From NCBI RefSeq assembly GCF_028583425.1, contig NC_072801.1, positions 58,295,766 to 58,359,765 of the forward strand: 64,000 nt of DNA. Direction: 5' to 3'. The translations under genes and the position numbers were made by a program. Each line of letters starts with the position of its first letter. Position 1 is the first letter of the stretch. Source of the DNA: Eublepharis macularius. Its lineage: Eukaryota > Chordata > Lepidosauria > Squamata > Eublepharidae. The notes below the pieces were generated by a model. It searched no databases. It was not told where the DNA came from and saw nothing but the letters and a program-made list of their open reading frames with translations. This document shows positions 1,955 through 46,477 of this stretch, piece after piece.

Positions 1955-2400
1955 TCTCCAAATTTAGGTGGGTAGCTGTGTTAGTCTGCAGTAGATCTTT
2001 GAATGGACTTTGTATTGACTCTGAAATTGAACGGTTTCTTTCACGTCCTAAGACTATGTTGGAATTGAAATAGTTGGTGGCCTGATGAAGGATTTGTCCT
2101 GAAACGAGCCAAATTATATTGGACCGGTAAGCTCGTTGCCACTCAGCGTTTTTTTGATGTCTTCAACCAGCTCCCACGGACCTCGGGACATCACGAATCA
2201 ACAGCGACGTGATTAAAGACAGAACCACTTACTTGTTGGATATTTGAAGATATTTATTGGAACTTTTTCTTGCTCTTAGTGGTTATTGTACCACATTGTT
2301 ATTCACTGTTGTAATTTCTATTGTAAATTTGTACATAGGGCAATATACCTTTTGGCTTGCTTCCTTTGTTGTTTTTGGGTTAGTCTGCAGTAGAACAGCA
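1955..2400 (+). mobile_element. Repeat containing the hammerhead ribozyme, possibly a Penelope-type terminal piece
   Basis: The segment starts with GTGTTAGTCTGCAGTAG, holds the ribozyme, and continues with AT-rich sequence; a second GTTAGTCTGCAGTAG occurs at 2381. No open reading frame of a Penelope element was seen next to it. The family assignment rests on the ribozyme alone. Confidence 0.4.
2076..2143 (+). ncRNA. Type I hammerhead ribozyme, complete by inspection
   Basis: All core parts are present in order. Stem I 5' side GGTGGC (2076-2081), core CTGATGA (2082-2088), stem II AGGA/TCCT with loop TTTG (2089-2100), core GAAA (2101-2104), stem III ACGAGC (2104-2109) pairing with GCTCGT (2131-2136), cleavage nucleotide T at 2137, and stem I 3' side GCCACT (2138-2143). 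Stem I is six pairs including one G-U. Stem II opens with A-U rather than the usual G-C. Such ribozymes are known in the terminal repeats of Penelope-like elements, and this one lies in a repeat-like stretch. Confidence 0.75.
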
Positions 2401-2580
2401 GGATATGAGTCCAGTGGCACCTCGGAGACCAACAAGATTTTCAGAGTGTAAACTTTTGAGAGTCAGAGCTCAAGAAGGGTTCCCTTGGTTCCCAAAGCTC
2501 AAGAAGGGAACTTGGACTCTCGAAAGCTTACACTCTGAAAATGTTTTTGGTCTCTAAGGTGCCACTGGACTCATACCATG
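2389..2580 (+). repeat. Interspersed repeat with inverted arms (GTCCAGTGGCACCT family)
   Basis: ATGAGTCCAGTGGCACCT at the left is mirrored by AGGTGCCACTGGACTCAT at the right, with TTTCAGAGTGTAA and its reverse complement inside. The same family recurs at 8.5, 20.5, 21.1, 28.5, 41.2, 44.9 and 53.4 kb. Confidence 0.7.
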
Positions 2581-2777
2581 CCGTCTCCAATTTGGTGCTG
2601 ACTTCCTCTTTTCCTTCATTTACAAACTCCATGTAGCCTTTAAAAAAGTGTTTGGGGCACCTGGTGTTTTTTAACAAAGCCAATCTGTTAGGTTATTTAT
2701 TTTACATATTTATAAGCCCACCTTTCTCCGAGACAACTGGGATCCCTCTAGGACCCATCCTTCAAGTACTGCTGTAA

Positions 2778-3094
2778 CTATGAGCCAAAACACACGTTAA
2801 GAAATACCTAGGTTCAGCACGTGTTCTCTTACCTCAAGGTTTGCCGGGATCTGTAGGCGTCCTGGAAGCTTAAAGTTTAGCATTTACAGAGCGCCTGTAT
2901 TTTAAGCTTTAAGCTTCCAGGACGCCTTTAAGCTTCCAGGACGCCTACAGATCCTTTAAGCTTCCAGGACTTTAAGCTTCCAGGACGCCTATAGATCTTT
3001 AAGCTTCCAGGACGCCTACAGATCCCGGCAAACCTTGAGGTAAGAGAACACGTGCTGAACCTAGGTATTTCTTAACGTGTGTTTTGGCTCTATG
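2778..3094. mobile_element. Foldback DNA transposon with tandem core; 5-bp target duplication CTATG
   Basis: CTATG at 2778-2782 and 3090-3094 flank inverted ends starting AGCCAAAACACACG. The arms are about 90 bp and near perfect. The centre holds several copies of TTTAAGCTTCCAGGACGCC. Confidence 0.85.
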
Positions 3095-7200: not shown

Positions 7201-10200
7201 CACAAAATACCAATAAACAAGATTATGCATAGTTTTGATAGTAGTTCTTCAACATTTCAGGCAGATGTTCTGTTAAATGGGCGGGGGAGAAAGGAAATCT
7301 CTTTCACACACACACGCATACAGAGGAAGCTGAAGTGCAGGGGAGATGAGTATTTTTTTAAAAAAATACACTGGGTAAGGGAAGTGAGAGAGAATGAAAC
7401 TAACACTGTGATGGTAGCTGCTGCTGAAACAACTATTTAAAAATCTGCACAGCCAGATCTCCAATGGCCACAGAGACCCTGCTGGCCAAGAGCACCCTCC
7501 CAACCCTGCTCACTTTCTAAAAACACTTGGAAGGCACCAGGAAAGGTAATGGTGCCACAGTTAGACCAGGATTACCTTTAAGCTTCCTTCAAAATTCAAA
7601 TAACAGAATTGTATTTTATGATTACCTGTCGATGCCTCACTGCCCCCATCCTGCTTGTCCACTTGGGGGTCTAGAGCCAGCTGCAGGCGCAAACCTAGAG
7701 GCAAAGAACAGCCTTATTGGACACCAAAGGCCAGTGTCGTTTTAGGTTATATCCAAAAGAAACACTGAGGAGATCATCGTACCCATGTGTTCAGCGCGGC
7801 TTCTCCCAAAAGAATACCGACAGATTGAAAAGGAGTCAGAAGTTGGTTGCAAGGATGTTCAGAGGAGTAGAAAAGAAGGAAACACACCACAAATCAGACC
7901 ACAGTTAATGGTCTTTAGATTTACTACCTAGTATTCAATTTTATGCCAAACATAGGTCATCTTATGCTAAACACAGGTGGACTTAAAGCTGTTGCAGTTC
8001 TGTTCACGTTTCCTTGGAGAAATTCTCATGGAACTCAAGAAGGCTTTGTTCTTCAGTAAACATGTTTAGTACTGTGCTACAGAACAAAAGATACATGTGT
8101 CCAGGATGAGGGACCCCAGAGACTATGATCAGAGTGTCAGATGAGGGCATGGGTTCAAATCTCTACTCTGCCATGAGGCTCTCTGGGTGACCCTGTGCCA
8201 TCTATTGGGGAGGGGAGGGGAGAGAAGGAGATCATGTATGCTGCCCTGAGCTCCTTATAAGGAAAACCAGGGGAGGAAAACAGAGATAGGAAGCCTGCAT
8301 CTCAAAGTGAGAGGAGACATACCTATTAAACAGGGGCACATGCCATGAAAGTTAAAATTGTATATGGAGAAAATTATAGTGTTAAATGTTATCAGAAGTT
8401 TTTTGCAATTTCAGTGAAGTGTCTTAGTGAAGTGTTAAGGGGGGCTCACTTCTGGTAGAAGAACATCTGCTGATTTTGCCAAAAGTGAGGGGCTTTCAGC
8501 ACTGCAGGATTTGGATAGCTGCGGCTCAATAAAATCTATTGGTCTCTGAAGAAGGGAGCTTTGACTCTCAAAAGCTTATACCCTGAAAATCTTGTTGGTC
8601 TTTAAGGAGCCACAGGACTCAGTCCTGTAGCTCAACAGAAGAAGAATCATGCTGTCTTTGGACTTGGCCAACTGATTTGAAAGGAGTTACTTTCTTTCCT
8701 AGTTGAGAAAATAACCACACACTACTGACCTCATTTTACACAATGTAGCAGTACAATATCACACAAAGTTGCAGATGTAATACAAGCCCTTTAACTATCA
8801 GTAGGATCTCCCAGGCCTTTTTGATCTGGCTCTCTCCTCATTTCAATTGGACATACCCACACTACAAATTAATGTTGGTTTTCTGTCAGTTTAACTTGTG
8901 TAGCTTCTTCCTCAAAGGATCCTGGGAATTGTAGTTGTGTGGGTATGCTGAGAAATCTCTCTCAGAGATTCCTATTTACCCACACACAGCTACAATTCCC
9001 TGGAGCCGATAGAATATTTTATTTAAAACATTTGTATGCTGCCTTTCTACCCAACTTAGGGTACCCAAGGTAGCAAACAATCAAAATAATGTTTCCAATG
9101 CAGATAAAAATATATACAATATTTAAAACAATTAAAAAACATATAAACACAGATACGGAGAAAGGCCAATGTAAGTTAATGAAGGAACGTCAAACAACAA
9201 AAAATTCATCACCCACTGGTGGAAGACAACGATAGAGGAAGGTAGATGAATGTCCTCGGGAGGGAGTTCCAACTGAAAAACTGCTATCTGTTTAGCCTCA
9301 GGCAGCAGGAGCACCTAATGCCGTGCCTTTGAAAATGACTAAAGTGGTCAGGTAGGTTCATATTTAACCTGTTTAAGTATGTAGGATAGATAAACCCTTT
9401 TTTGGGATTGCCAAACACTATTTATCCTACCGCCTGGTAAAGTGGTTGGCTACTGGGGATTAGGTTAGCCTTTGATCTGTGCGGAATGATGAAGAGATAC
9501 TGTGTGTTGCATTTGGAAGTCTCAGAGCCAAGCTACAAGTGACACCTTACACAGGTTGGACACTTGTCAGCTTCCCTCAAGTTTTGATGGGAAATGTAGG
9601 CATCCTGGTTTTACAGCTTGGCCCTCCATTACAGCTGCAAGACCAGGATGCCTACATTTCCCATCAAAACTTGAGGGAAGCTGACAAGTGTCCAACCTGT
9701 GTCTGGCGTCACTTGTAGCTTGGCTCTCAGGACAGAGATTCTGGTTCATTTGCCGTCTCCAGGCCTGGATCCAATACCTGCAATAAGTCGTGCAGCTCCA
9801 GGACTCAAAACAATCTCTTCTTCCACATTTTCATAGTTGTCACCATCTGTTGGAAAACACAAGGAGAAGTGACCAACACTAACTAGAATGGATGGCTTTG
9901 GGTGGTGTCTCCACTTTACTGAGGGAGTTGTTGCTCTGAGCAATGCCTTCCAATCCCTAAGAAAGCAGTTTCTCAGAGTAATGGCCCCATTTTGCATAGA
10001 AGGCAAAGACTTATGTTCCTGTGGTAATTTGCTGGTGTCAGTGGGACAGCTACTGCTGTTTCTATATGCAAAGTTCTTACCAGGGAAAGAGGCATGAGGA
10101 ACACCAGGGGCAATAATTTGCAATCTGCACAAGTGCTGCTTCTGGGAGAAAGGGATGTCACCATGCCAATAATATTCATTTTCACAACCCAGTGCAAACA

Positions 10201-19200: not shown

Positions 19201-22200
19201 TCAACAACTTTTCTGGAACCACAGAAAGTGCATTCCCAAAAAGGCACTGAAGAAACAGAGGCCAAACTGCCCACAGCTGTTTTGCAAACAGAGACGTCTG
19301 GATTCATGAGGAAAAGCCACCAGCGTTTGGCGAGTGGGCCATCCCTTTAAGGGCATGTGGAAACAGCCTTACTCTAATCAATTTATATTTCACAATATAC
19401 ACATATACCTTTACATCCTACCAGGGCTTTTTTTCTGGGAAAAGAGGTGGTGGAACTCAGTGGGTTGCCCTCAGAGAAAATGATGAGGTTGCCAAGCCTC
19501 CTCGATCTCCCAGCGGGAGATTTGGGCCTGGCTCTTACCTTGGAGGAGCGGATGTGTGCGCGCACGGAGCGCACACGCATTCTCCTGCAAGCGTGATGAC
19601 ATCACTTCTGGGAGTGATGTCATCATGCAGCCCCCGTTTGGGCGCTGATTTGGGTCTGTTGTGGGCCCCTGCGGAGCGCAGGAACGCTCCCACGCCCCAC
19701 AGGGGCCCACAACGGGCCCAATCCATACCAAAACGGGCCCGATCCATGCCCGTTTTGGCACAGATCGGGTCCATTTTGATGCGGATTGGGCCCATTTTGG
19801 ACCCCTGTGGAGCGTGGGAGCGTTCCTGCACTCCGCAGGGGCCCACAACGGGCCCAATCTGTGCCAAAATGGACCCAATCCGTGCCAAAACGGGCTCCAC
19901 AGGGGCCCCAATCCAGGTCAAAACAGGCCTGATCCTGGGGCTGCTGTGCGCAGGGGCACGCAGCACCGCAGGGAGCACGCATGGAAGGTGCGTGTGCCCC
20001 TGCTGGCCAGGTAAGTGGGGGCGGGGTGGGAGGGTGGGGGCGCGGGATCCCCACCGGGGGTCTGGCAGCAGTGTTCCCACTAATGTGAGCACGTGAGCAA
20101 TCGCTCACAGATTCTGACTCCTCTGCTCACAGCTTCTCAGATGTAGCTCACAGATACTAACCCTCAGGCTGCCCCGCCCTCCCACTCAGCCAGCATCTGC
20201 AGGTGGTCCCTATATGGATGGAGCCTCATCGCACTTCTCCCTTCCTGGCTGTGGCTGGTTTGGCCCCCAGGGTGGTGCCAGAGAGTGCCTCCAGCCACTG
20301 CTGACTCTCTAGCTGGGGAACAGAGCCGAGCGAGTGATCGGGTCTGGCCTGACCCGTGCAGCCTGAAATTGCTAGGATCCCCTCAGCCCCAGAAAGCGGA
20401 GGAGAGGAGGTAGCGCCTCAGCCGCCACCATGGTGAAGGTGTCATTTAACTTGGCCTTGGCGCAGAAGGAGGCTGAAGAAGTAAGCACTGACTCACAAAA
20501 GCTCATCTTGAAATAAACATGCTAGTCGGTGCCATTGCGTGTCTGCTTTATTTTGCAGCAACAGACTAATACAACTACCCCTTTGTAATCAGCATGGACA
20601 TATCCATTTTTATACAGAAGTATACTCTGTTTTTTGTGGCCCTTTTACCTAATGGCTTTTATTGGTAAATTGTTTTGATTGTAATCAAAACAATTTGATT
20701 GTAATTTTTTTTTAAAAAGGAGGTGCACTCAAAACGTTAATGAAAGTTGTTGTTTCGGCTCACAAAGTAGATTTTTAGCTTACAACACTGCAAAGCTTAG
20801 AGGGAACATTGTCTGGCAGCCCTAGAAAATGGTCACATGGCTGGTGGCCCTGCCCCCTGATCTCCAGACAGAGAGGAGTTGAGATTGCCCTCTGCGCCGC
20901 TTGGCGGCGCGGAGGGCAATCTGAACTCCCCTCTGTCTGGAGATCAGGGGGCAGGGCCACCGGCCATGTGACCATTTTCAAGAGGTTCCAGAACTCCATT
21001 CCCCCGCGTTCCTGCTGAAAAAAAGGCCTGCATCCTACCTTACTTCTTTGCAACACCCCTCCTACCTTCTGATTGAAATATAAAGACTCAGATCTCCATT
21101 CATACTTGTATCTGACAAAAGGAGCATTGGCTTTCTAAAGCTTATACCATAGAAAATCTTGTTGGACTTTAAAGTGCTACTGGACTAGAACCTTGCTTAG
21201 GGAACTTTGGGATTGTCTCCAGAGTCAGCCAATTAGCATTCTCTGGACACATATGGGGAACTGGGGCCTTTAGGGCTGTCACCAGGGCTGCTCACGGTTT
21301 CTGGAACAAAAAGAATCAGTTTCAATTCAGTTTGGAAGTTTGTTCATCTGTCTAAATAAGCATAATAGCAAATATACAACAAGCTGCTCATTACATTGGC
21401 TAAATGCAGCCTTCCAAAGACCATGCTGTAACTCGACACCTCACAGAAGTGTAACTAATTGTCTATAAGATCAGACTTTAAGATGAGGGCCTGAGAAGTC
21501 TATCTTCTTTTTTTTAAAAAAAATTGTCTCATCTAGCCTGATGAAGAGCTCTGGGAAGTTCAAAAGCATAGGCAGTATTTTTTGCCAATTTAGTGGTTCA
21601 AATAAAATACAGGTTTTGTTCTTCTTTTTTGATTTTGTGTGGATCAGTATGGCAGTACAACATTCCCCCCACTACATACAACAAGGATGTCCAACAGCAA
21701 GCCCATAAGGCACATGGTGCCTTTTGACTAGAGGTGGGCACAATCCAAAAAAAAATTACCAATCAAGCTGATCGTGGATCGGCACCAGCGACGATCCCAA
21801 ATTAATGATCTGCACTGATCGTCTCCCATTTCCGATCTGTGGATCGTGGATCGTGGATGCCAAAGCAGGGCGCGCTGCTATTCCCAGCTATGTGGGAAGG
21901 TGGGTGGTGGTGGCCGCCGCTGGGCACAGCGGGCACAGGGAGACGGCGACGTCGTATCCCTACAATACTTCCCTCCTATCTGAGTAAAAAACCTTTTTGA
22001 ATAATTTGGTTTTGCACAGTTTGCAGAAACCCAGGAGAGTGGACGCTCTCCTGACCTCTGGCTGGCTGTTCCACAGGGTAGGGGCCACCACAGAGAAAGC
22101 CCGTGTACAGGCTCCTGTTGATTTCACCCATATGCAGGCTGGCATCTCCAAGAGACCCTGTTCAGATGAGCGAAACTGCCATGGAGGGACACAGGGAGGG

Positions 22201-25200: not shown

Positions 25201-28200
25201 GCAACATGCAGCAGGAAGGGGGAGTTGGGATCCAAAAACATTCATCTTTGGGCCAAGCTACAAGTGACAAATGACACTTGAACGGCAAGTGTATTTCTCC
25301 CTGTTCACTTGCCCTCCAGTCAATCCACTTGCCGTTCAAGTGTCGTTCGTCACTTGTAGCTTGGCCCTTTGTCTAGCACAGCTCCATGGGTGCAAGATAA
25401 GATATACCCCTTTATGCCTTGCTTTCTGGTGAAATCTTCAACAGCATGGCTTGTGAAAATCTGAGAGATAACTATGGGCCAAGCTACAAGTGACGAATGA
25501 CACTTGCCTGGCAAGTGAACAGACTCGTGTGTATTCCTCCCTGTTCACTTGCCATTCCTCCCTGGTCACTTGATCAAGTGGAGAGCAAGTGAATGGCAAG
25601 TGAACAGGGAGGAATACACGCGAGTCTGTTCACTTGCCAGGCACGTGTCATTCATCGCTTGTAGCTTGACCCTATGTAACAACAGGAGCTAATCACTGTA
25701 GCCTCTCTGTTCTGCTGACTCATAATCTTAGGATATAGGCTGTAGCCAGTCCCTAACCCACACCTGCTCCACCACTCCCCAAAATAATCTTCCATTACTC
25801 TGAATCATATTTCTGCCAGGACACTTTCTAATACCTCGTCCTGTTTCTTTTTATCCCACCTAAATTCCTCTTAACATTACACTTAATCCTTCTTCCCAGT
25901 TCACAATAAAAATTGCCAGTAGTAGCTTTAAATAAAAAACCCCAAAGATACTTGTTCCAGTCCCAGAAGCCCCTTCCTTTGCCCCTGCCCAGGCCCAGGC
26001 CCTTCAGCTGCTGCCCACAGAGAGATGAGGCAGAGAAGAGCGAGCCATGTTCACAACTCATGCTGACAGCATCAGTCACCCTTTATTCCAGCTCAGAAGC
26101 CATACAGAAGCAGAAAAAACACAGATATACTAATAACCAGCAATGATATTTCAACGTATTTCCTAACAGTGAAGAAAATGATTTATTACCATATGAAGAA
26201 TCGGTCCCATTTTGTTCCATTTCCTCTTTAGGGGCAGTGGCAGCATCTGAAGGAAACAGACTAGAATGACTAGGCTGGCCTACCCTTCCCTTAGTCCACC
26301 TCCTTTTGTTTCTCTGCTCCACTGGAACTTTCCCATCTCCCTTATCCAGCTAGTTTCAGTCAGTTTCTGTTTGCTGCTTCTACTGTCTTGCTGTCTAAGC
26401 TTTTCTTGCACAGTTATAGTCAAGGCTAGGCCGCTAAGCAGTTTTGTATTTCAAGCTAGCAAGAAAAAATGGCTGTGCTTTTGCTCCCTCTTTAGAAGAT
26501 AAGCTGAAGCATTAAGTGGAATTGCTTCTTTAGTGTTATAGCAAGCTCTATGCTGGGCATAAGACTGAATTGACTGAGACTCAAGCGAAGCCTGGTAACC
26601 AGTAGATAGATATGAGCGAGTTGGTGCAAACCAAGAGAAGCATAGAGTTCAGAAGACAGGAATAAATTGTATACAACAGCGTATGCAAATTAAAAGAACA
26701 GAGATACCTAGAAAGGCCTGTTTGACAGCACGAAGAAGGGTTCCCCATCCTGATGTCGAAGATGACAGGGAGTCCCACCAAAGGCTGAAAGGCTGTTGCT
26801 TTGTTGCCTCCCAGTCCCGTACTGCTTTTTCAGCTGATAAAATATGGTGGTTTATTTCAGTGGAATTATCAGGGATGTAGGTACAGCATTCTTTTTCTGT
26901 TCAAGTGCATATCCCCCTTGGGTAAACAGTAAATAATCTAAACCCAAGTGGTTTTGCAATATTACCATTAGCATTTGAGTTACTTCTCCAGTTAACAGTT
27001 TCACGGCTGCTAGAGAGCTAGAGTGTAGTTAGCAGATCTTTCATTAAAAAGGCTCAGAGCATTAAATGGTGTTACTATCTTTGCAGTACCATATTACGGA
27101 AGAGTAGTCATTCCGTACCTATCTCCTTCTGAGATGACATGGGCATCATGAGTACCGTATCTGCCCTCAGGTATGAAAACATTCTCTCTCCAAATTCTAA
27201 GTCTTCCTTGTGGGAGTTGACGGGTAACCCTGAATTGTGGTGGGAGAAATTCTTTATAAAAGGATCCATTCCACCCATGAGGCAGCCACTTATAGGCCGT
27301 TCTGCCACAACTCCACCATTCATCTCCATTTTAAAGCCAGTTTGGTGTAGTGGTTAAGAGTGCAGGACTCTAATCTGGAGAGCCAGGTGTGATTCCCCAC
27401 CCCTCCACTTGTAGCGAGCTGGGTGACCTTGGGTCAATCACAGCTTCTAGGAGCTCACTCAGCCCCTCTCACCTCACAGGGTGTTTTGTTATGGAGATGA
27501 TAATAACATACTTTGTAAACTGCTCTGAGTGGGCATTAAGTTGTCCTGAAGGGTGGTATATAAATCAAATGTTGTTATTATTATTATTATTTCTACCATA
27601 CCAAGTCAAGCCTCCTGGCTCACCAGAATTTGTGGCAAAAATGCCTTAGTTCATTTTGATTTTGTGCTTTGCCCAGTGATTACACCAAGACTTGAAGAAC
27701 TTTGAAGAGGAAAACCTTTTATTTCATGAAATAAGGGGACAGTTTCGAGCAAGTAAAAACACTCTGCGCCCACCTGAGAAAGACGGAGGGAGGGATCTTT
27801 TATACCTTGTCTTTATGAGACAAAGCCTCTCTTCTGATGGCAAAGCCCACTTCCTTTTGCTTCTCTGCTCTGGTGAAACTTTCCCATCTCCCTTCTCTAG
27901 CTAGCTTCAGCCAGTTTATGTTTATTGCTTCTACTGTCTTGCTATCTAAAATTTTCTTGCACAGTTACATTCAAGGCCAGGCAAATAAGCTGTTTTGTAT
28001 TTCAACCTAGCAAGAAAAAATGGCTGTCCTTTTGCTCATGTGTTCCAGAGTTCTGTAACAGTCAGGTGTGCGTAGCCATGCCTGATTCATATTGGGGCTG
28101 CAGCATGCAGAGAGAAGGGTTCTCTGTCTTTTCTAGATTGACCCTGAACTGGTCTTAAAAGTCCATGATTTCCGAGGCAACCTGCTGGCCTGCTGTTCCA

Positions 28201-29529
28201 TCAGCCACTCCTCCCACCCAAAATGGGGTATACAGCAGCTCAGCCATTTCAGGTTGAGAAACCAGGTTTACAGAAATATATACACTTGGTCTGGGGATTC
28301 CCATTGTGCAGATATTTTGATCTGCACAAAGGAGGCCACATTTAAATCAATCTCTAAGAGATGTCTTTTGGTTGTGAAGCAACTAACTAAACAACCAGAT
28401 AATACTGTCCCTTCATCTTATAGATCAAGATGGGTTGCGGTGTTAGTATATTGTAGCAGCAGAAAAAAAGCAAGAATCCAGTAGCTCAGCTGTGACTCAC
28501 GAAAGCTCATACTCTAACCACAAATTTTGTCTTATAGGTGCTACTGGACTCTTGCTCTTTTCTATGCCTTCATCTTATAATTAGCTTCCTTCGCTGCCCC
28601 CCTCCTCTTTACCCTTGGACTTACACTCCATGTCATAAGAGTAGTCACTCACTTCTATTTCTTTATCTGGTGGGAAGAGAGACAAAGGCTTGGTTCTTAT
28701 AAATAAGCATATGAGGGTTTTTTTTAAGTTTCAGGACTATAGCACTTCAGACTGCAGATAGGGGTTCAAACAACAGTTCATATTAAAATAAAATCCACAC
28801 AGAGAGAAAACTACCATGTTGGGGCAAGAGTGGGCTAGCTGTCTGTTCCTCAACATTTGCTTTCCTATGTACGGGGTAAAAAAGCTTAGGAACATTAAAT
28901 CATACAAGACCCCACTTGATGTTTGAGGTGGTACGATCCAGCAACAAATATATCACCTCACCTGCTGTCTGAGAACGCTAGACTGAAGAGCAAGAACAAA
29001 AGAAAGAAATGTGGATGATAGCAGTATTCTGACAGGGCCGACTGGTCTAGACCTTTGCTCAAGCAGTACCATTGCCATCCGGCACCTTGGTGCTTGGCAG
29101 CACTGCTGAGAGCAACCCTGGGCAACCCCTTCAAGTGAAAAACAATCCCTCCGGGTTTTCCCTCATGCCACCCAAACCACCCAACCCAAACATGCTATGA
29201 AAACAAAGTGCCATTAGAACGAACAGACTTGTGATTGGTTCTCTCTGTGTGCACCAAACTCAATGCACATTAGACCTAGACAATGTGGTGCCCACCTGGA
29301 TTTCCTTCCCAGTGGCAAGTAAACTGAATGTCATCCTGACTGGAGATGTTGAGGATCAGTAGCCCCCAGTCCATATCTGGACTTGCCTCATGGTCAGGAT
29401 AGTGGTATTTCACACGCACATTCAGCACCATCCTCTCCAGTGGACCAAGCCAAGTGAGATTCAGATAATTTGAAGCTGGTGTGGGGCCCAAGCCACCCAA
29501 GATGCAGGGCAGGATCACTGTATCTGACT
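4222..29529 (-). CDS. CD19: CD19, B-cell co-receptor (signal-peptide exon not found)
   Basis: CD19 is a single-pass membrane protein of B cells. With CD21 and CD81 it lowers the threshold for B-cell receptor signalling by recruiting PI3-kinase, VAV and Lyn through tail tyrosines. Read from the right: Ig exon 1, Ig exon 2, a transmembrane exon, a basic juxtamembrane exon, then eleven further tail exons ending at TAA (4222-4224). The confident exons give about 490 codons; human CD19 is 556 residues. Diagnostic matches are DAGNYTCHW in Ig2 (human DAGKYYCHR), EEYEHPDSE (human EGYEEPDSE), GSQSYEEM (human GSQSYEDM) and DSYENM (identical to human). The two YxxM sites correspond to the PI3K-binding tyrosines 482 and 513 of the mature human protein. 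Exons are almost all phase 1-1. Two extra small exons between the Ig exons are uncertain. Downstream of ATP2A1 on the same strand, as in human. Confidence 0.93.
4771..4851 (-). CDS. CD19: CD19 exon: PI3K site DSYENM
   Basis: 27 codons, phase 1-1. DGDSYENMESPNSFSLRKEG matches human DADSYENMDNPDGP, the second YxxM site (human mature Y513). Acceptor ATCTTCTGCAG, donor GTAAGT. Confidence 0.93.
5083..5160 (-). CDS. CD19: CD19 exon: PI3K site GSQSYEEM
   Basis: 26 codons, phase 1-1. GSQSYEEMNGTL matches human GSQSYEDMRGIL, the first YxxM site for the p85 SH2 domains (human mature Y482). The rest (SPTTSKGLQTSNEE) is diverged. Acceptor TTTCCATCAG, donor GTGAGT. Confidence 0.93.
6380..6895 (-). mobile_element. 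LINE ORF2 C-terminal fragment
   Basis: On the minus strand the frame reads ICPCCEEGIESVEHVIFDC, a C-x2-C-x8-H-x4-C type knuckle found near the C-terminus of several LINE ORF2 proteins, then leucine-rich sequence and LASRIRKTLTAQ. Clade not assigned. It is a short degenerate fragment in a CD19 intron. Confidence 0.6.
7100..7230 (+). repeat. Interspersed repeat fragment
   Basis: ACTTGTGGAATTTTGATACAG and ACCACAAAATGGCTGCCAC resemble the segments at 16.98-17.09 kb and, inverted, 24.15-24.23 kb. Unclassified. Confidence 0.4.
7626..7694 (-). CDS. CD19: CD19 exon: tail spacer LRLQLALDPQVDKQDGG
   Basis: 23 codons, phase 1-1, without tyrosine. LALDPQVDKQDGGSEAST occupies the place of human SAWDPSREATSL just before GSQSYEDM. 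Acceptor TTGCCTCTAG, donor GTAATC. Confidence 0.75.
8120..8290 (+). repeat. tRNA-derived SINE fragment
   Basis: A B-box-like GGTTCAAATCT is followed by CTCTGCCATGAGGCTCTCTGGGTGACC and a G/A-rich body. No A box is clear. Confidence 0.4.
8540..8625 (+). repeat. Copy of the CTGAWGAAG...GAAAGC repeat family
   Basis: CTCTGAAGAAGGGAGC, then CTCTCAAAAGCTTATACC and TCTTGTTGGTCTTTAAGG, the same order of blocks as in copies at 2.5, 21.1 and 41.2 kb. Confidence 0.6.
8840..9010. repeat. Foldback-like repeat with CTGGGAATTGTAG arms
   Basis: CCTGGGAATTGTAGTTGTGTG at 8921 is mirrored by CACACAGCTACAATTCCCTGG at 8983. Looks like a small nonautonomous DNA transposon; ends not fixed. Confidence 0.45.
9521..9729. 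mobile_element. Foldback element, AGCCAAGCTACAAGTGAC ends, target CTCAG
   Basis: Almost the whole element is a palindrome with a short centre. Direct CTCAG copies at 9521-9525 and 9725-9729 flank AGCCAAGCTACAAGTGAC and its reverse complement. It lies about 50 bp from the CD19 exon at 9778. Confidence 0.85.
9778..9846 (-). CDS. CD19: CD19 exon: tail segment DGDNYENVEEE
   Basis: 23 codons, phase 1-1. DGDNYENVEEEIVLSPGAAR resembles human AESYENEDEELTQPVAR. Acceptor TTTTCCAACAG, donor GTATTG. Confidence 0.85.
10879..10947 (-). CDS. CD19: CD19 exon: tail segment ADSWYANNAQN
   Basis: 23 codons, phase 1-1. ADSWYANNAQNSLQDPTQEP resembles human NAESYENEDEELTQP. The tyrosine sits in YANN rather than YEN. 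Acceptor GGCCCATAG, donor GTAACA. Confidence 0.75.
10995..11039 (-). CDS. CD19: CD19 exon: tail segment DGSSYENSKKE
   Basis: 15 codons, phase 1-1. GSSYENS corresponds to human GSGYENP. Acceptor CTTCCACAG, donor GTATTG. Confidence 0.85.
12266..12325 (-). CDS. CD19: CD19 exon: tail segment DEDNYENAQEE
   Basis: 20 codons, phase 1-1, with a YEN motif in an acidic setting, like human EFYENDSN. Acceptor TTTCCTTTAG, donor GTAACG. Its upstream intron is the apparent source of the similar flank at 26.25-26.33 kb. Confidence 0.88.
12972..13028 (-). CDS. CD19: CD19 exon: acidic tail segment DDDDEEYEHPDSE
   Basis: 19 codons, phase 1-1. EEYEHPDSEIE matches human EGYEEPDSEED, the acidic segment around human mature Y391. 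Acceptor TTCCCCACCAG, donor GTAAGT. Confidence 0.9.
13500..14340 (-). repeat. LINE 3'-end fragments and a 5S-SINE tail
   Basis: TTTATGGTCTGCC at 13.53 kb and TAGTCCACCTTTCTCACTGAGACTC at 14.13 kb are reverse complements of the L2/CR1-type 3' end seen at 59.7 kb. GCCATGAAAACCCC...GACTTGACTGCAC at 14.27-14.32 kb matches the tail of the 5S-derived SINE at 61.6 kb. Confidence 0.5.
14895..15120. mobile_element. hAT foldback element (CAGGGCTTTTTTTC family)
   Basis: Ends CAGGGCTTTTTTTC and GAAAAAAAGCCCTG, arms almost mirror-perfect (CTCCAGACAGAGGGGAGTT). Flanks GATCTTTAC and GATCTTTTAC suggest an 8-bp duplication with one indel. Family copies also at 19.42 and 33.59 kb. Confidence 0.85.
15622..15738 (-). 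CDS. CD19: CD19 exon: tail segment with FSYENIL
   Basis: 39 codons, phase 1-1. FSYENILPN aligns with human NQYGNVLSL, and QQSLQKANTLPAAG with the Ala/Gly-rich stretch after it. The tyrosine is in a YENI context, so this lizard has a YEN motif where human has YGN. Donor GTAAGT. Confidence 0.88.
15960..16105 (+). repeat. Short imperfect minisatellite
   Basis: Three units of about 50 bp built on GGCCTCCAGAGG...TGGCTCACCTGGCC, in the intron before the exon at 15738. Confidence 0.55.
16650..16723 (-). CDS. CD19: CD19 exon: cytoplasmic tail, KFFHAQ segment
   Basis: 74 nt, phase 2 in and phase 1 out, reading KFFHAQRNKAPGPDGILLP and AMNGD. Together with the previous exon it gives ARRKFFHA, matching human TRRFFKVT. 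Acceptor GGTTTCCAG, donor GTGAGT. Only this frame is open. Confidence 0.85.
17561..17609 (-). CDS. CD19: CD19 exon: basic juxtamembrane segment with a GC donor
   Basis: 49 nt, phase 1 in and phase 2 out, reading AFHARREKKQLREPAR and then R across the junction. It matches human RRKRKRMTDPTRR just before FFK. The acceptor is CTCATTTCAG. The donor is AG|GCAAGT, the usual form of a GC-AG intron. Without it, the transmembrane exon (phase 1 out) cannot join the next exon (phase 2 in) in frame, which supports the call. Confidence 0.8.
18000..18058. repeat. AT-rich inverted and direct repeats
   Basis: TTTAAACTAGTAATT occurs twice in direct orientation and once inverted within 60 bp, just left of the CD19 transmembrane exon. 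Confidence 0.6.
18177..18284 (-). CDS. CD19: CD19 exon: transmembrane segment
   Basis: 36 codons, phase 1-1. AVWQHFGKQHW is followed by a hydrophobic helix (VALGYLAACLGSLFCFL) and then basic RFKR as stop-transfer. It aligns with human PVLWHWLL, AVTLAYLIFCLCSLVG and the basic stretch that follows. Unlike my memory of the human exon, the basic juxtamembrane stretch is on a separate exon. Donor GTAAGT. Confidence 0.9.
18323..18565. mobile_element. Foldback element with AGTCTCTCTACAC ends
   Basis: AGTCTCTCTACACAAG is mirrored by CATGTAGAGAGACT. Flanks GTATG (18318-18322) and CTATG (18566-18570) match at four of five positions. Inner arms include GTTAGCCGGGAAG-type sequence, shared with 47.95-48.29 and 53.80-54.16 kb. 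Confidence 0.65.
19080..19370. repeat. Foldback-like repeat with CCTTAAAGGGA arms
   Basis: GCCCTTAAAGGGACAGC at the left and CATCCCTTTAAGGGCATG at the right are inverted; GTCTGTTTGCAAAAC and GTTTTGCAAACAGAGAC pair inside. Confidence 0.55.
19485..20824. mobile_element. Middle hAT of the nest (TRRGGYTGCCA ends)
   Basis: Starts TGAGGTTGCCA and ends TGGCAGCCCTA. Flanks GAAAATGA and GAAAATGG match at seven of eight positions and rejoin the outer element. The left part is very GC-rich with strong self-complementarity (GTGGGCCCCTGCGGAGCG and its mirror). It is split by a third element. Confidence 0.8.
20069..20811. mobile_element. Inner hAT of the nest (CARTGTTCCC ends)
   Basis: Starts CAGTGTTCCCACTAA and ends TTAGAGGGAACATTG. 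The exact 8-bp duplication TCTGGCAG flanks it at 20061-20068 and 20812-20819. No transposase frame is evident in its 743 bp. Confidence 0.85.
21110..21195 (+). repeat. Copy of the CTGAWGAAG...GAAAGC repeat family
   Basis: TCTGACAAAAGGAGC, CTAAAGCTTATACC, TCTTGTTGGACTTTAAAGTGC; a degraded copy. Confidence 0.5.
21960..23240 (-). mobile_element. L2/CR1-clade LINE with large internal deletion
   Basis: On the minus strand the endonuclease part shows CLTETWLQENDKVYL and GVAIILHES, then MGDFNIHAE. An open frame of 292 codons (21960-22838) joins this to the C-terminal reverse-transcriptase part (LDYCNALYIGLPSKLPRRLQ, SLHWLPISYHAQFKVL, YKALHGL). The YxDD-bearing middle of the RT is missing, so the copy is internally deleted. 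It sits in the intron between the CD19 Ig2 and transmembrane exons. Confidence 0.8.
23705..24030 (+). repeat. Tandem duplication of about 170 bp
   Basis: CCAGTGAAATAGCCAGGCTAG through GCAGCTGCAGATCAAAGGGAAG occurs twice (about 23.72-23.85 and 23.89-24.03 kb), the second copy with small insertions. Confidence 0.75.
24334..24624 (-). CDS. CD19: CD19 exon: second Ig-like domain
   Basis: 97 codons, phase 1-1, from acceptor TTCCTCCTGCAG to donor GTAAGG. FPVLCNG and GNYTCHW hold the Ig cysteines. KSLSWILPN matches human GPLSWTHVH and SVTSRDAGNYTCHW matches human RATAQDAGKYYCHR. Sequons include NGS, NWT, NRT, NYT and NQS. A second, weaker in-phase donor (GTACAC) lies 15 nt earlier and would trim five residues before the membrane segment. 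Confidence 0.93.
24961..25182. mobile_element. hAT nonautonomous element (TAGGGTTGCCA ends)
   Basis: Starts TAGGGTTGCCAGCTCC and ends GGCTGGCAACCTTA. Flanks GATGAGGG (24953-24960) and GATTAGGG (25183-25190) match at seven of eight. Same end type as the middle element of the 19.4-21 kb nest. Confidence 0.8.
25246..25371. mobile_element. Foldback element, GGCCAAGCTACAAGTGAC ends, target CTTTG
   Basis: Exact CTTTG at 25246-25250 and 25367-25371. Arms carry GACACTTGAACGGCAAGTG and its mirror. Confidence 0.85.
25472..25676. mobile_element. Foldback element, GGCCAAGCTACAAGTGAC ends, target CTATG
   Basis: Exact CTATG at 25472-25476 and 25672-25676. Arms of about 80 bp with ATGACACTTGCCTGGCAAG and its mirror. 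Confidence 0.85.
26190..26246 (-). CDS. CD19: CD19 candidate exon b, duplicate of the exon at 12266
   Basis: A 57-nt phase 1-1 stretch with acceptor TTTCCTTCAG and donor GTAATA. It reads DAATAPKEEMEQNGTDSSY. The second half (EEMEQNG) resembles EEVKQED of the tail exon at 12266-12325, and about 90 nt of the upstream intron is also similar (both carry AAGGAAACAGA and GGCTGGCCTAC). It looks like a duplicated tail exon placed between the Ig exons. Whether it is spliced in is unknown. Confidence 0.4.
26277..26500 (+). repeat. Left copy of a dispersed 220-bp duplication
   Basis: CTTTCCCATCTCCCTTATCC through GCAAGAAAAAATGGCTGTGC is repeated at 27.84-28.06 kb at roughly 85-90% by eye. The left end overlaps the intron block shared with the exon at 12266. 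Confidence 0.7.
27335..27595 (+). repeat. tRNA-derived SINE
   Basis: A-box-like TGGTGTAGTGG and B-box-like GTGATTCCCCAC, then GAGCTGGGTGACCTTGGG, CACCTCACAGGGTGTTTTG, GGTATATAAAT and an ATT-repeat tail. Same family as the minus copy at 39.07-39.34 kb. Confidence 0.85.
27835..28060 (+). repeat. Right copy of the dispersed 220-bp duplication
   Basis: Matches 26.28-26.50 kb in the same orientation. Both lie in the CD19 intron region between the Ig exons. Confidence 0.7.
28432..28565 (+). repeat. Copy of the GTGTTAGT...GTGCTACTGGACTC repeat family
   Basis: GGTGTTAGTATATTGTAGCAGC, TCCAGTAGCTCAGCTGTGACT, CACGAAAGCTCATACTC and TAGGTGCTACTGGACTC in order. Confidence 0.65.
28625..28666 (-). CDS. CD19: CD19 candidate small linker exon a (uncertain)
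   Basis: A 42-nt open stretch between a good acceptor (CTTCCCACCAG) and a strong donor (GTAAGT), phase 1-1, reading DKEIEVSDYSYDME. The VSD resembles human linker-exon NVSD, but the match is weak. Joined directly to the Ig2 exon it would make a TAG codon at the junction, so it could only be used together with the exon at 26190-26246. It may be an unused pseudo-exon. Confidence 0.35.
29296..29529 (-). CDS. CD19: CD19 exon: first Ig-like domain
   Basis: 78 codons, phase 1-1. It starts ESDTVILPC (human EGDNAVLQC) and ends at FTCHWEGNP, giving the two Ig cysteines. NLTW and LNIS are potential N-glycosylation sites. The donor is GTGGGC; the acceptor (CAAATCAAG) has a modest pyrimidine tract. The exon stops soon after the second cysteine, so the last Ig strand must come from the next exon or be short. 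Confidence 0.85.
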
Positions 29530-30260: not shown

Positions 30261-31610
30261 GATGTATTGTCGAAGGCTTTCACGGCCGGAGAAGGATGGT
30301 TGTTGGGGGTTTTTCGGGCTGTCTTGCCGTGGTCTTGGCATTGTAGTTCCTGACGTTTTGCCAGCAGCTGTGGCTGGCATCTTCAGAGGTGTAGCACCAA
30401 AAGACAGAGATCTCTCAGTGTCACAGTGTGGAAAAGATGTAGGTCATTGTATCTACTCAGGAGGGGTGGGGTTGAGCTGAGTCATTCTGTAAGAGTTTCC
30501 CAGGGTGTGGAATGCTAATGGCGGGAGGCTTCACTGTATCCTGAGGCGGTTCTTTTGCATATGGATTGGTGCTTGATGTGCTAATCTTCTCTGCAGGGCT
30601 ATTGTCGGGTGTGGAGTGTTTTGTTGGCCTGGTGTTTTTCAGAACTGGAGCCCATGCTCTGTTCATTCTTAAGGTTTCTTCTTTCCTGTTGAAGTTTTGC
30701 TTATGCTTGTGAATTTCAATGGCTTCCCTGTGCAGTCTGACAAAGTAGTTGGAAGTGTTGTCCAGTATTTTGGTATCCTGGAATAAGATACTGTGCCCTG
30801 TTTGAGTTAGGCTATGTTCAGCCACTGCTGATTTTTCAGGCTGTCCAAGTCTGCAGTGTCTTTCATGTTCTTTTATTCTTGTCTGGATGCTACGCTTTGT
30901 GGTCCCGATGTAAACTTGTCCACAGCTGCAGGGTATACGGTATACTCCTGCAGAGGTGAGGGGATCTCTGCTGTCTTTTGCTGATCGTAGCATCTGTTGT
31001 ATTTTTCGGGTGGGTCTGAATACTGCTTGAAGGTTATGCTTTTTCATAAGCTTTCCCATCTGATCAGTAATTCCTTTGATATATGGCAAAAACACTTTTC
31101 CTGTGGGAGACTGTTTTTCTTTGGTTGTTTGATTCATCCTGGGTTTGATTGCTCTTCGGATTTCATTTCTGGAGTAGCCATTTGCCTGAAGTGCGTGGTT
31201 TAGATGATTAATTTCCTCATTGAGAAAGCGCGGCTCACATATCCGTCTTGCACGATCCACTAATGTTTTCATTATGCCTCTTTTCTGTCGGGGGTGGTGA
31301 TTGGAGTTTTTGTGTAAGTACCGATCAGTGTGAGTTGGTTTCCTGTAGACCTTGTGACCTAACTGAAAGTTTGCTTTGCGGATGACCAAGGTATCCAGGA
31401 ATGAGAGTTTTCCCTCACTTTCTTTCTCCATTGTGAATTGTATGTTCAGGTGGATGTTGTTGAGATGATTCAAAAACTCCATCAATTCTTCCTCCCCATG
31501 GCTCCAAATGATGAATGTATCATCCACAAACCGGAACCATACACTGGGTTTGTGGGGTGCTGATTCTAGAGCTGTTTTTTCAAAATGTTCCATGTAGAAG
31601 TTTGCTATAA
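30261..31610 (-). mobile_element. Penelope-like element, left copy (minus)
   Basis: 5'-truncated copy with the C-terminal part of a Penelope RT-endonuclease and its 3' end. It carries about 33 bp more at its outer end (GTCGAAGGCTTTCACGGCCG) than the right copy. From 30294 to 31610 it mirrors the right copy almost base for base. TTCATAGACATT (30249-30260) and TTCATAGATATT (32938-32949) flank the pair, a probable target duplication. Confidence 0.85.
30457..31593 (-). CDS. Penelope RT C-terminus plus GIY-YIG endonuclease (left copy)
   Basis: 378 codons, identical in protein to the frame at 31641-32777. RFVDDTFIIW (residues 21-30) is RT motif C; the earlier RT motifs are absent because of 5' truncation. 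GVYRIPCSCGQVYIGTTKRS (216-235) is the GIY-YIG core, with the C-x-C and later EHERHC and EHSL residues forming the Cys/His pattern typical of Penelope endonucleases. REAIEI near residue 300 likely holds the catalytic Glu. A Pro/Ser/Thr-rich tail follows. The start Met is simply the first after the truncation, so this is not a full protein. It makes DNA nicks for retrotransposition in intact relatives; here it is probably a dead fragment. Confidence 0.85.
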   Translation of the reverse strand: MEHFEKTALESAPHKPSVWFRFVDDTFIIWSHGEEELMEFLNHLNNIHLNIQFTMEKESEGKLSFLDTLVIRKANFQLGHKVYRKPTHTDRYLHKNSNHHPRQKRGIMKTLVDRARRICEPRFLNEEINHLNHALQANGYSRNEIRRAIKPRMNQTTKEKQSPTGKVFLPYIKGITDQMGKLMKKHNLQAVFRPTRKIQQMLRSAKDSRDPLTSAGVYRIPCSCGQVYIGTTKRSIQTRIKEHERHCRLGQPEKSAVAEHSLTQTGHSILFQDTKILDNTSNYFVRLHREAIEIHKHKQNFNRKEETLRMNRAWAPVLKNTRPTKHSTPDNSPAEKISTSSTNPYAKEPPQDTVKPPAISIPHPGKLLQNDSAQPHPS

Positions 31611-31640
31611 GAAGTTTGCCCAGTTATAGCAAACTTCTAC

Positions 31641-32777
31641 ATGGAACATTTTGAAAAAACAGCTCTAGAATCAGCACCCCACAAACCCAGTGTATGGTTC
31701 CGGTTTGTGGATGATACGTTCATCATTTGGAGCCATGGGGAGGAAGAATTGATGGAGTTTTTGAATCATCTCAACAACATCCACCTGAACATACAATTCA
31801 CAATGGAGAAAGAAAGTGAGGGAAAACTCTCATTCCTGGATACCTTGGTCATCCGCAAAGCAAACTTTCAGTTAGGTCACAAGGTCTACAGGAAACCAAC
31901 TCACACTGATCGGTACTTACACAAAAACTCCAATCACCACCCCCGACAGAAAAGAGGCATAATGAAAACATTAGTGGATCGTGCAAGACGGATATGTGAG
32001 CCGCGCTTTCTCAATGAGGAAATTAATCATCTAAACCACGCACTTCAGGCAAATGGCTACTCCAGAAATGAAATCCGAAGAGCAATCAAACCCAGGATGA
32101 ATCAAACAACCAAAGAAAAACAGTCTCCCACAGGAAAAGTGTTTTTGCCATATATCAAAGGAATTACTGATCAGATGGGAAAGCTTATGAAAAAGCATAA
32201 CCTTCAAGCAGTATTCAGACCCACCCGAAAAATACAACAGATGCTACGATCAGCAAAAGACAGCAGAGATCCCCTCACCTCTGCAGGAGTATACCGTATA
32301 CCCTGCAGCTGTGGACAAGTTTACATCGGGACCACAAAGCGTAGCATCCAGACAAGAATAAAAGAACATGAAAGACACTGCAGACTTGGACAGCCTGAAA
32401 AATCAGCAGTGGCTGAACATAGCCTAACTCAAACAGGGCACAGTATCTTATTCCAGGACACCAAAATACTGGACAACACTTCCAACTACTTTGTCAGACT
32501 GCACAGGGAAGCCATTGAAATTCACAAGCATAAACAAAACTTCAACAGGAAAGAAGAAACCTTAAGAATGAACAGAGCATGGGCTCCAGTTCTGAAAAAC
32601 ACCAGGCCAACAAAACACTCCACACCCGACAATAGCCCTGCAGAGAAGATTAGCACATCAAGCACCAATCCATATGCAAAAGAACCGCCTCAGGATACAG
32701 TGAAGCCTCCCGCCATTAGCATTCCACACCCTGGGAAACTCTTACAGAATGACTCAGCTCAACCCCACCCCTCCTGA
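31641..32777 (+). CDS. Penelope RT C-terminus plus GIY-YIG endonuclease (right copy)
   Basis: 378 codons, same protein as the left copy. RT motif C (FVDD, residues 22-25), connector rich in Lys/Arg/Asn, GIY-YIG at 216-230, C-terminal low-complexity tail ending HPS. The frame is intact over its length, so insertion was recent or the arms have been homogenised. No promoter or full RT is present. Confidence 0.85.
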   Translation: MEHFEKTALESAPHKPSVWFRFVDDTFIIWSHGEEELMEFLNHLNNIHLNIQFTMEKESEGKLSFLDTLVIRKANFQLGHKVYRKPTHTDRYLHKNSNHHPRQKRGIMKTLVDRARRICEPRFLNEEINHLNHALQANGYSRNEIRRAIKPRMNQTTKEKQSPTGKVFLPYIKGITDQMGKLMKKHNLQAVFRPTRKIQQMLRSAKDSRDPLTSAGVYRIPCSCGQVYIGTTKRSIQTRIKEHERHCRLGQPEKSAVAEHSLTQTGHSILFQDTKILDNTSNYFVRLHREAIEIHKHKQNFNRKEETLRMNRAWAPVLKNTRPTKHSTPDNSPAEKISTSSTNPYAKEPPQDTVKPPAISIPHPGKLLQNDSAQPHPS

Positions 32778-37800: not shown

Positions 37801-39066
37801 CTGCTTCTTCATTTTTCCCCATAGGAAATAATGAAGAAGATGAGCAGCAGCATGCTAACAATATGCTGCTCCTTCGCTTTCTTATGGGAGGATAGGGGGA
37901 CCTGCTTTGGGGGGCCATAACATGGCCCCCCAAAGTCCAATCGGTCTGAAACTTGGGGGGTTTTTAGAGAGGGGTTAGAGGAAGGTCCCCACCAATTTTG
38001 GGCTGATTCGGTGGGAAAATGCCTCCCCCAGACGTCCGGGAAGACGGAGGCATTTTCCCATTGAAAAGCCGAAAGAAAGCCTAAAGAAGCCGAAACGTTT
38101 CGGCTTTTTTTCTTTCGGCTAGCCGAAACGTTTCGGCTTTCTCCGAAACGTTTCGGCTAACCCGAAAGAAGCAGAAACACTTTTGTTTCGGCTTTCTTTC
38201 GGCATTCAGAAAGCCGAAACACACATCCCTACTGTTTACCTTATGGTATTGTATTGAAATCTGCTTACTTGATACTGATTGTATTAACCTCATATTGTGT
38301 AATCCACCTTGAGTCTGTGAGAAAGGCAGACTATAAATGACGTAAATAAAATTAGTATGTTTGTGAAAAGTGTGACCGTAAACAGTGGGCGCAACTGATA
38401 GTGGTCTCTCTTCAACAATGTAACCAGTCTAGTTGACTTCCCACCGCTTTAGAGCTAGAAAAGATGCCGGGGGGGCAGAGATTTTTGCCACTGTACACTT
38501 CTGTAGGCAATTGGGCCTAAGAAGTAGGACCATTCATTGAAAAGGCAAGCACTGGGACCCAGCGGAACTGGTACATTGTGGCAGGTACACTTAACTGTGT
38601 GAATGAACCCCAGCACGTCCCTGGGGAGCTGCAGGAAACTTGTCAGCTTGCCTTGCAGCTGCAGCGGATGGATGTGCGAGCTCAATATGAACAGCCTGGG
38701 CCTGAAACTGAACTGGAGGCTGAGGGAGGGGAGATTTAAAGCCTGGCATGGGCGGGGGGGGGAGAGCTGAATTCCCCTCTTCGACACATCTTGTCCCAGA
38801 TGGGCTGCCTAGAAAATTGTGTGTGTCCCTTCTTGCAAGGTTGGATACTGGGGAGTAGACAGCGTTTTTTAAAAAATTGTATAACCTATGGTCATGTTTT
38901 AAAACATTAATTCCAGCTTTTGAGGCTCTATGGGATCTATTGTTAAGGTTCTGCCCTGGTTCCTATCAACCAGGCATATGCTGGGAGTTCAGTGCCGAAA
39001 CTGAATTCACAAATATGTGGGGACCTAATTCAGATCAGGGCTGCAGTATATGAGGGAGAGAAAGTT

Positions 39067-41160: not shown

Positions 41161-41171
41161 TGTCTAAAAAA

Positions 41172-46271: not shown

Positions 46272-46477
46272 CTCAGAGCCAAGCTACAAGTGACGAATGA
46301 CACTTGCCTGGCAAGTGAACAGACTCGCGTGTATTCCTCCCTGTTCACTTGCCATTCACTTGCGCTCCACTTGATCAAGTGGAGAGCAACTGAACGGCAA
46401 GTGAACAGGGAGGAATACACGCAAGTCTGTTCACTTGCCAGGCAAGTGTCATTCATCACTTGTAGCTTGGCTCTGAG
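46272..46477. mobile_element. Foldback element, AGCCAAGCTACAAGTGAC ends
   Basis: CTCAG (46272-46276) and CTGAG (46473-46477) flank near-perfect arms containing ACACTTGCCTGGCAAGTGAA. The centre is CACTTGATCAAGTG. Confidence 0.8.

What the first reader, a model, noticed from the sequence alone, without database searches (positions are those of the whole stretch)
2076..2143. Complete type I hammerhead ribozyme in a reptile repeat
Seen: all invariant core bases (CTGATGA, GAAA, T-T cleavage site), three stems of 6, 4 and 6 pairs, in the right order on the plus strand, within 68 nt. Known: hammerheads occur in Penelope-like elements and as scattered genomic copies. Inference: it is a functional or recently functional self-cleaving RNA. 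Unlike the minimal Penelope type it has a full stem III, so it need not dimerise, and an A-U pair opens stem II.
Basis: partly seen in the sequence, partly recalled or inferred. Interest (0 to 1): 0.82.

Follow-up and report, generated by a model that had tools for sequence, protein, structure and literature searches.

The report
Self-cutting RNA motif in Penelope retroelement
The window holds a small spliced copy of a Penelope-type jumping element carrying a hammerhead self-cutting RNA motif with a full third stem, and some broken sister copies elsewhere in the same genome are broken exactly where that RNA should cut itself.

Summary
The motif at 2076-2143 is real: every core base and stems of 6, 4 and 6 pairs; the same descriptor occurs 0 times in 4,085 shuffles. 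Rfam finds no hammerhead there, even at E up to 10. It lies in a 382-nt insertion (1997-2378) flanked by a 16-nt target duplication inside an older Penelope-type repeat. The window's own genome has 156 places matching the motif core. One complete tandem unit has reverse-transcriptase and GIY-YIG matches, so the motif belongs to the 5' repeat of a Penelope-like element. The window copy came from spliced RNA: 19 of 19 classified intron-bearing copies extend upstream of the start, 22 of 22 spliced ones begin there. Scars indicate cleavage in vivo: copies at five loci start, and at two end, at the predicted cut 2137/2138. Controls one base either side found an inherited duplication, one of those same cut-site scars, and unrelated DNA. 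Most copies read across the cut, so cleavage is partial. No compensatory changes were found and self-cleavage was not tested directly. New variant of a known kind.

The parts
1980..1995 (+). left target-site duplication GTTAGTCTGCAGTAGA (19 nt, 1977-1995, if one mismatch is allowed)
   Evidence: repeat D1; self-BLAST with empty-site relatives at 44829-44895 and 41371-41176
1997..2378 (+). spliced mini-retrocopy of a Penelope-like element pLTR, from presumed transcription start to internal RT start site (ends ambiguous by a few bases at the duplication)
   Evidence: spliced copies share the 5' boundary CTTTGAATGG; 3' ends cluster at TGTTTTTGG(TGCAG) or somewhat further on
1997..2072 (+). exon 1; an intron (GTGAGT...TTATAG, 87 nt in L069 266-352) is missing between 2072 and 2073
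   Evidence: alignment with intron-bearing copies L016, L017, L025, L028; L069
2076..2143 (+). type I hammerhead ribozyme motif
   Evidence: complete in 44 of 46 places read
2076..2081 (+). stem I, 5' strand, pairs with 2138-2143
2082..2088 (+). catalytic core CUGAUGA
   Evidence: 7 of 7 columns invariant in 25 rows
2089..2100 (+). stem II (4 pairs, A-U first) and UUUG loop
2101..2104 (+). core GAAA
   Evidence: 4 of 4 columns invariant in 25 rows
2104..2136 (+). stem III (6 pairs with A15.1-U16.1) and its 21-nt loop
2137..2138 (+). predicted cleavage site, between U17 (2137) and G (2138)
   Evidence: breakpoints in other copies at this site
2379..2394 (+). right target-site duplication
2395..2584 (.). 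continuation of the older, different Penelope-type repeat that was the insertion target (inverted pair of arms)
   Evidence: inverted repeat I1, self-BLAST, sequence

Best explanation
The motif is the hammerhead ribozyme of the 5' repeat (pLTR / 5' untranslated region) of an endonuclease-bearing Penelope-like element. The window carries a 382-nt mini-retrocopy: an RNA that began at the element's start site and was spliced was reverse-transcribed from an internal start site back to its 5' end, and inserted with a 16-nt duplication. In element transcripts the hammerhead folds and cuts, incompletely, between U2137 and G2138. Most RNAs used as templates were uncut across this site. Some templates were cut fragments, and the reverse transcriptase ran off their 5' end (G2138) or started on or jumped to their 3' end (U2137), leaving scars exactly at the cut. 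Shown: anatomy, family membership, splice junction, conservation, breakpoints at the cut. Inferred: that a ribozyme rather than a protein made the cuts, that cleavage is partial, and that unit-length RNAs are released from tandem arrays.
For: Family and host element: 156 matches with up to 3 mismatches, 0 for the backward control, some spaced 3,957-3,958 nt in tandem. Unit L069 has a 752-aa frame, RVT_1 E 1.6e-8, and GIY-YIG E 3.3e-4, 21.3 bits against a cut-off of 22.6. Conservation: CUGAUGA, GAAA, UU and the stem I 3' strand are invariant in all 25 rows; stretches outside the motif are 0.815-0.920 identical. Splicing: intron status and 5' end fully linked, 19/19 against 22/22 of the 41 classified places. 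Cleavage scars: all 7 hits (5 loci) of the two not-T+GCCACTCAGCG searches are structural breakpoints starting at 2138, one of them 2138 or 2139 (read). Both hits (2 loci) of the 3'-side search are breakpoints ending at 2137 (backward control 1; read). One-base controls: for 2137, 10 hits, of which 9 are one inherited 16-nt duplication and 1 is the C9 scar at the cut; for 2139, 2 hits with backward control 1, both unrelated DNA. Independently, 3 of 9 breakpoints between 2079 and 2197 lie at the cut, P about 0.001 if uniform.
Against: No Rfam hammerhead match. No compensatory base changes. The hammerhead fold lies 1.9 kcal/mol above the predicted best fold in the window copy, about 2% of the ensemble without tertiary contacts. 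U17 and A10.1-U11.1 are expected to be slow (recalled, no call). All 22 spliced copies classified span the cut, though they were found with queries containing the motif; with a downstream query 47 of 58 matches still had the motif core upstream. One near breakpoint lies at 2141, not at the cut. No RNA data. In Anolis Poseidon, hammerhead mutants did not change insertion and no RNA-seq ends were seen at the cut (PMC11167929, section 3 read).
Confidence: 0.8

Rival explanations
1. The conserved segment works as a non-cleaving structured RNA (a long hairpin in which UGAUGA pairs with UCGUU, or a protein-binding site), and the hammerhead look is a relic. The breakpoints are reverse-transcriptase stops at structure.
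For: The best predicted fold of the window copy and of the alignment is that hairpin. Strand pairing is conserved without covariation.
Against: GAAA, unpaired in the hairpin, is invariant in 25 rows. In the tandem unit L069 the best fold is the hammerhead plus one extra pair. A stop at structure should fall at the 3' edge of stem I (about 2143/2144), not at 2138 (inference). Copies ending at 2137 and an 8-nt insertion exactly between 2137 and 2138 suggest a break in the template.
Confidence: 0.12
2. A retrozyme: a non-autonomous circular-RNA element whose unit runs from hammerhead cut to hammerhead cut.
For: Size (382 nt) and a type I hammerhead fit the published animal retrozymes (PMC7229834, abstract and passages).
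Against: Spliced copies run from start site to tail, not cut to cut. The tandem repeats seen are units of 3,957-3,958 nt with RT and GIY-YIG.
Confidence: 0.05
3. The cuts are real but made by a cellular or element-encoded nuclease at this structure, not by RNA catalysis.
For: No activity assay was possible. For the Anolis element no cleavage occurred without protein (PMC11167929).
Against: The position is the exact bond predicted from the hammerhead core. In Anolis, endonuclease mutants left RNA cleavage intact while C3 and G8 mutants abolished it (same paper).
Confidence: 0.08
4. Chance motif in a repeat.
For: No Rfam hit; the bare core pattern alone is not rare.
Against: 0 in 4,085 shuffles for the full descriptor; invariant core in 25 rows.
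Confidence: 0.01

Closest known systems
Poseidon of Anolis carolinensis (PAc), a Penelope-like element with a hammerhead (PMC11167929)
   Same: pLTR position, RT + GIY-YIG, tandem units, two adjacent 3' start sites giving an optional tail, hammerhead near the 5' side
   Different: [quoted passage not shown] Here stem III has six pairs, and the motif lies just after an intron, about 350 nt before the ATG of the first long frame in L069 (766). The genome keeps scars at the cut.
Minimal hammerheads of metazoan Penelope-like elements (Cervera and de la Pena 2014; paper not held, seen only as cited in PMC6155905, PMC7229834 and PMC11167929)
   Same: type I, in pLTRs
   Different: PMC6155905 (passages) says they usually lack helix III; this one has it
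Animal retrozymes with type I hammerheads (PMC7229834)
   Same: type I hammerhead, short repeat unit, target duplications longer than 4 bp
   Different: here the motif is part of an autonomous element, and the short copies run from start site to tail
Adineta vaga Penelope elements (PMC3846280)
   Same: head-to-head inverted pLTRs, optional tail, short target duplications
   Different: that paper proposes an antisense template as compatible with intron retention; here spliced sense RNA was the template of the short copies

Membership tests
Type I hammerhead ribozyme | invariant core CUGANGA, GAAA, NUH and three stems in type I order | tested here: met
Type I hammerhead ribozyme | score above an Rfam hammerhead threshold | tested here: not met
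   Membership by core and stems is kept; membership of an Rfam family is not claimed.
Type I hammerhead ribozyme | stems kept by paired changes | tested here: inconclusive
   0 of 16 pairs with a change on both sides among 22 distinct sequences; 98.0% of cells paired
Type I hammerhead ribozyme | self-cleavage between U17 and the next base | not testable with these tools
   genomic breakpoints at the bond are indirect support
Penelope-like element, endonuclease-bearing | reverse transcriptase plus C-terminal GIY-YIG in the autonomous unit | tested here: met
   RVT_1 E 1.6e-8; GIY-YIG E 3.3e-4 on the C-terminal 130 aa, just under the Pfam cut-off; no GIY-YIG match when the whole frame was scanned
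Penelope-like element, endonuclease-bearing | pLTRs in tandem and head-to-head inverted partial copies | tested here: met
   3,957-3,958-nt spacing; L069 repeats its own start; head-to-head pairs
Penelope-like element, endonuclease-bearing | short target duplications and optional 3' tail | tested here: met
   Six copies tried: window 16 exact, L020 12, L024 13 exact, L015 8-10, none adjacent found by the script for L014 and L026; 16 nt at C1; 3' ends near unit 694 or 711-751
Penelope-like element, named subgroup (Neptune, Poseidon and so on) | place in the RT tree | not tested
   no reference proteins at hand; Neptune-like is a guess from memory
Retrozyme | unit bounded by hammerheads, no coding capacity | tested here: not met

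The most novel reading that the evidence does not exclude
In this vertebrate Penelope-like element the hammerhead cuts its RNA in vivo and sorts it into two fates. Capped, spliced, uncut RNA yields only dead-end mini-copies. Read-through (or antisense) RNA, processed at the hammerhead, carries the intron and the ORF into new full copies. That would explain at once why these retroelements keep both introns and ribozymes, and the genome records the cuts as template-end scars with untemplated bases.
Probability: 0.35. Interest if true: 0.78.

Novelty: new variant of a known kind. Interest (0 to 1): 0.62.

Why it matters
Hammerheads are reported from all Penelope-like element sequences then available (PMC6155905), yet for the one studied in vitro, cleavage was dispensable for insertion and no cut ends were found in RNA-seq (PMC11167929). 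The breakpoints found here are natural evidence that such a ribozyme cuts inside animal cells and that cut fragments meet the reverse transcriptase. The spliced mini-copies show that sense, spliced RNA is a template. This bears on the open question of how these elements keep introns, for which an antisense template has been proposed (PMC3846280, passages).

Tried and rejected
Rfam scans: no hammerhead. The miRNA-family hits are palindromes below threshold. Covariation: no paired changes in 22 distinct sequences, so no support. Viral contigs: 0 hits for the motif pattern. Model R1, which was built with the window copy in it, finds on the window only the motif itself plus a 10.6-bit chance match. 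NCBIfam and PDB gave no relative of the 752-aa frame. A hammerhead cut as the 5' end of most mini-copies was rejected: 22 of 22 spliced copies classified start at the presumed transcription start instead, with the caveat that queries contained the motif. An unbiased downstream pattern gave 58 matches (backward control 3): 47 with the hammerhead core (39 judged by a listed motif match at the right distance, 8 read), 9 read without it, 2 not read. Of the two unread, C6:144351005 aligned from window 2073 on. In one search the automatic breakpoints for L070 (2135, run through a palindrome) and L081 (1998, run through a deletion) were replaced by reading the sequence. Of the 10 hits, two of the nine inherited duplications were read (L074, L081) and seven were judged by lying 76 nt from the motif start listed. 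C9:90744479 first looked like a point mutant and proved to be an 8-nt insertion at the cut; it is also the tenth hit. Rows left out of the intron count: 5 of 46 (C10:70747984, whose alignment to the unit from 42 on would agree; C12:20300806; C4:96740102; C4:96740397; and C1:185398272, for which the script repeated its neighbour's row).

Full report
Observation. The sequence 2076-2143 reads GGTGGC-CTGATGA-AGGA-TTTG-TCCT-GAAA-CGAGC-(21 nt)-GCTCG-TT-GCCACT. Every invariant hammerhead base is present, with stems of 6 (outer pair G-U), 4 and 6 pairs and the cut expected between T2137 and G2138. A descriptor scan of both strands gave this one site even with stems relaxed to 4/3/3. 4,085 shuffles gave none at 6/4/6 and 0.022 per 64 kb at 4/3/3. 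The bare core pattern alone is not rare (31 of 100 shuffles). Rfam does not see it at any threshold tried, and its overall folding energy is ordinary.

Where it sits. A 19-nt direct repeat (one mismatch; 16 exact) brackets the insert that ends at 2378. The two flanks together match older Penelope-type repeats elsewhere in the window (44829-44895 and 41371-41176) that lack the insert. So the hammerhead lies in a 382-nt insertion into another repeat.

What the insertion is. The window's own genome (2.24 Gb) has 156 places matching the 34-nt hammerhead core with up to 3 mismatches, and 0 for the backward control; the list printed was cut at about a hundred. Spliced copies share a sharp 5' boundary, CTTTGAATGG (window 1997), and 3' ends at TGTTTTTGG(TGCAG) or somewhat further on. 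Some matches are spaced 3,957-3,958 nt in tandem. One such unit (L069) has a 752-aa frame with a reverse transcriptase (RVT_1 E 1.6e-8) and, in its C-terminal 130 residues, GIY-YIG (E 3.3e-4, 21.3 bits against a cut-off of 22.6; not found when the whole frame was scanned). An upstream 181-aa frame has its ATG at L069 766. Head-to-head inverted partial copies recur, as described for Penelope-like elements (PMC3846280, passages). The hammerhead is therefore in the 5' repeat of a Penelope-like element. The subgroup was not tested.

Splicing. Some copies carry GTGAGT...TTATAG (87 nt in L069, 266-352) three bases before stem I; the window copy lacks it exactly. Of 46 places examined, 41 could be classified. 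All 19 intron-bearing copies continue upstream of CTTTGAATGG with the unit's own sequence. All 22 intronless copies begin there (nominal Fisher P 4e-12, but copies are related by descent). BLAST alignments of these intronless copies to the unit end near 694 or at 711-751, short of the ATG at 766; one (C9:60654850) has a diverged Penelope-type frame about 0.5 kb away whose relation is unresolved. I read these as retrocopies of spliced sense RNA from the start site to an internal start of reverse transcription. The 3' end classes resemble the two adjacent start sites and optional tail of the Anolis element (PMC11167929, section 3 read).

Conservation. In 25 rows (24 copies and the window) CTGATGA, GAAA, TT and the stem I 3' strand are invariant. 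The motif as a whole is 0.957 identical, the stretches outside it 0.815-0.920. 44 of 46 places keep the whole motif, but part of these loci were fetched by an exact motif match, so that fraction is biased upward. Among 22 distinct sequences 98.0% of pair cells are paired, with no change on both sides of any of the 16 pairs. The stems are kept, but covariation is silent.

Fold. In the window copy the hammerhead fold is 1.9 kcal/mol above the best predicted fold, a hairpin that pairs UGAUGA with UCGUU; its ensemble share is about 2% without tertiary contacts. In the tandem unit L069 the best fold is the hammerhead plus one extra pair.

Scars at the cut. I asked whether other copies are broken at 2137/2138. 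An unbiased downstream pattern gave 58 matches (backward control 3): 47 with the hammerhead core, 9 read without it, 2 unread. With L082 (core present, stem I truncated) and counting the two arms of L070 once, there are 9 breakpoints, at window equivalents 2079, 2099, 2138/2139 (L070, a perfect head-to-head palindrome), 2138 (L071), 2138 (L081, a jump from within the intron), 2141, 2156, 2165 and 2197. Three of nine at the cut plus or minus one has P about 0.001 if uniform.

Targeted searches. The pattern not-T + GCCACTCAGCGTTCYT gave 5 matches at 4 loci, control 0: L071, L081, both arms of L021, where a 29-nt tandem duplication restarts at 2138, and L083, where a longer duplication restarts at 2138 after what look like extra A's. 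The pattern for a second subfamily gave 2 matches, the two arms of L070, control 0. So 7 of 7 matches (5 loci) are breakpoints and none is a point change of T2137. Controls one base away: for a break at 2137, 10 matches, control 0. Nine are a single inherited 16-nt duplication that itself restarts at 2137/2138 (two read, seven by their 76-nt offset from motifs listed); the tenth is the C9 scar below. For a break at 2139, 2 matches, backward control 1, both unrelated DNA. On the other side, GACCGGTRAGCTCGTT + not-G gave 2 matches, backward control 1. At C9 eight bases are inserted exactly between 2137 and 2138. At C1 a complete insertion with a 16-nt target duplication contains an intron-bearing copy ending at GCTCGTT (2-nt ambiguity), joined to a spliced copy that itself ends three bases before the cut, at the target junction.

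Mechanism. The simplest reading is that template RNAs had ends at 2137 and 2138: the reverse transcriptase ran off a 5' end at G2138, sometimes adding bases and jumping, or started on or jumped to a 3' end at U2137. The hammerhead predicts exactly these ends. Templates uncut across the site predominate, so cleavage was partial. The terminal U17 and the A-U first pair of stem II would be expected to slow it (recalled knowledge). In Anolis the hammerhead worked only with protein added (PMC11167929). What is shown is the sequence pattern; RNA catalysis itself is inferred.

Known or new. Hammerheads in Penelope-like elements are known and are described as usually minimal, lacking helix III (PMC6155905, passages). 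My searches of the held library (hammerhead with Penelope, lizard, amniote, SINE/reptile, Neptune and template switching, and Penelope with intron terms) listed no title or abstract reporting genomic breakpoints at a hammerhead cut. I opened four of the listed papers (PMC11167929, PMC7229834, PMC6155905, PMC3846280), three of them by passages only, and most subscription papers are not in that library.

Noticed in passing
window 41160-41380: Head-to-head palindrome of a different Penelope-type repeat carrying CTGATGA...GAAAGC, a degenerate-looking hammerhead core with a two-pair stem III at best; related arms at 8530-8640, 21100-21210, 28470-28570 and 2395-2584.
   Followed up: partly
window 61427-61541 +: 5S rRNA-like stretch, 36.1 bits against a gathering score of 38, perhaps a 5S-derived SINE or pseudogene.
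   Followed up: no
window 46334-46415, 25528-25620, 9572-9679, 38084-38141, 31563-31671, 2838-3030: Palindromic stretches that score as miRNA models on both strands, all below threshold; they look like foldback transposon remnants.
   Followed up: no
C2:203560400-203564900 (L069): Tandem Penelope-like units identical over the 543 overlapping bases read, with an upstream 181-aa frame before the 752-aa frame; suggests recent activity. Described only.
   Followed up: partly
C1:185395150-185398600 (L084, L029): Complete Penelope-like insertion with 16-nt target duplication, inverted arms, one intron-bearing and one spliced leader in the same insert.
   Followed up: yes
C4:96740102 and C4:96740397 (L040, L041): Two head-to-head copies in which exon 2 (GTTGGTGGCC...) is preceded by a different sequence ending CTGGAG, as if another first exon had been spliced to the same acceptor.
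   Followed up: no
L068, C9:60653092-60654000 -: A diverged Penelope-type RT frame (303 aa) about 0.5 kb from a spliced leader copy; whether they belong together is unresolved.
   Followed up: no
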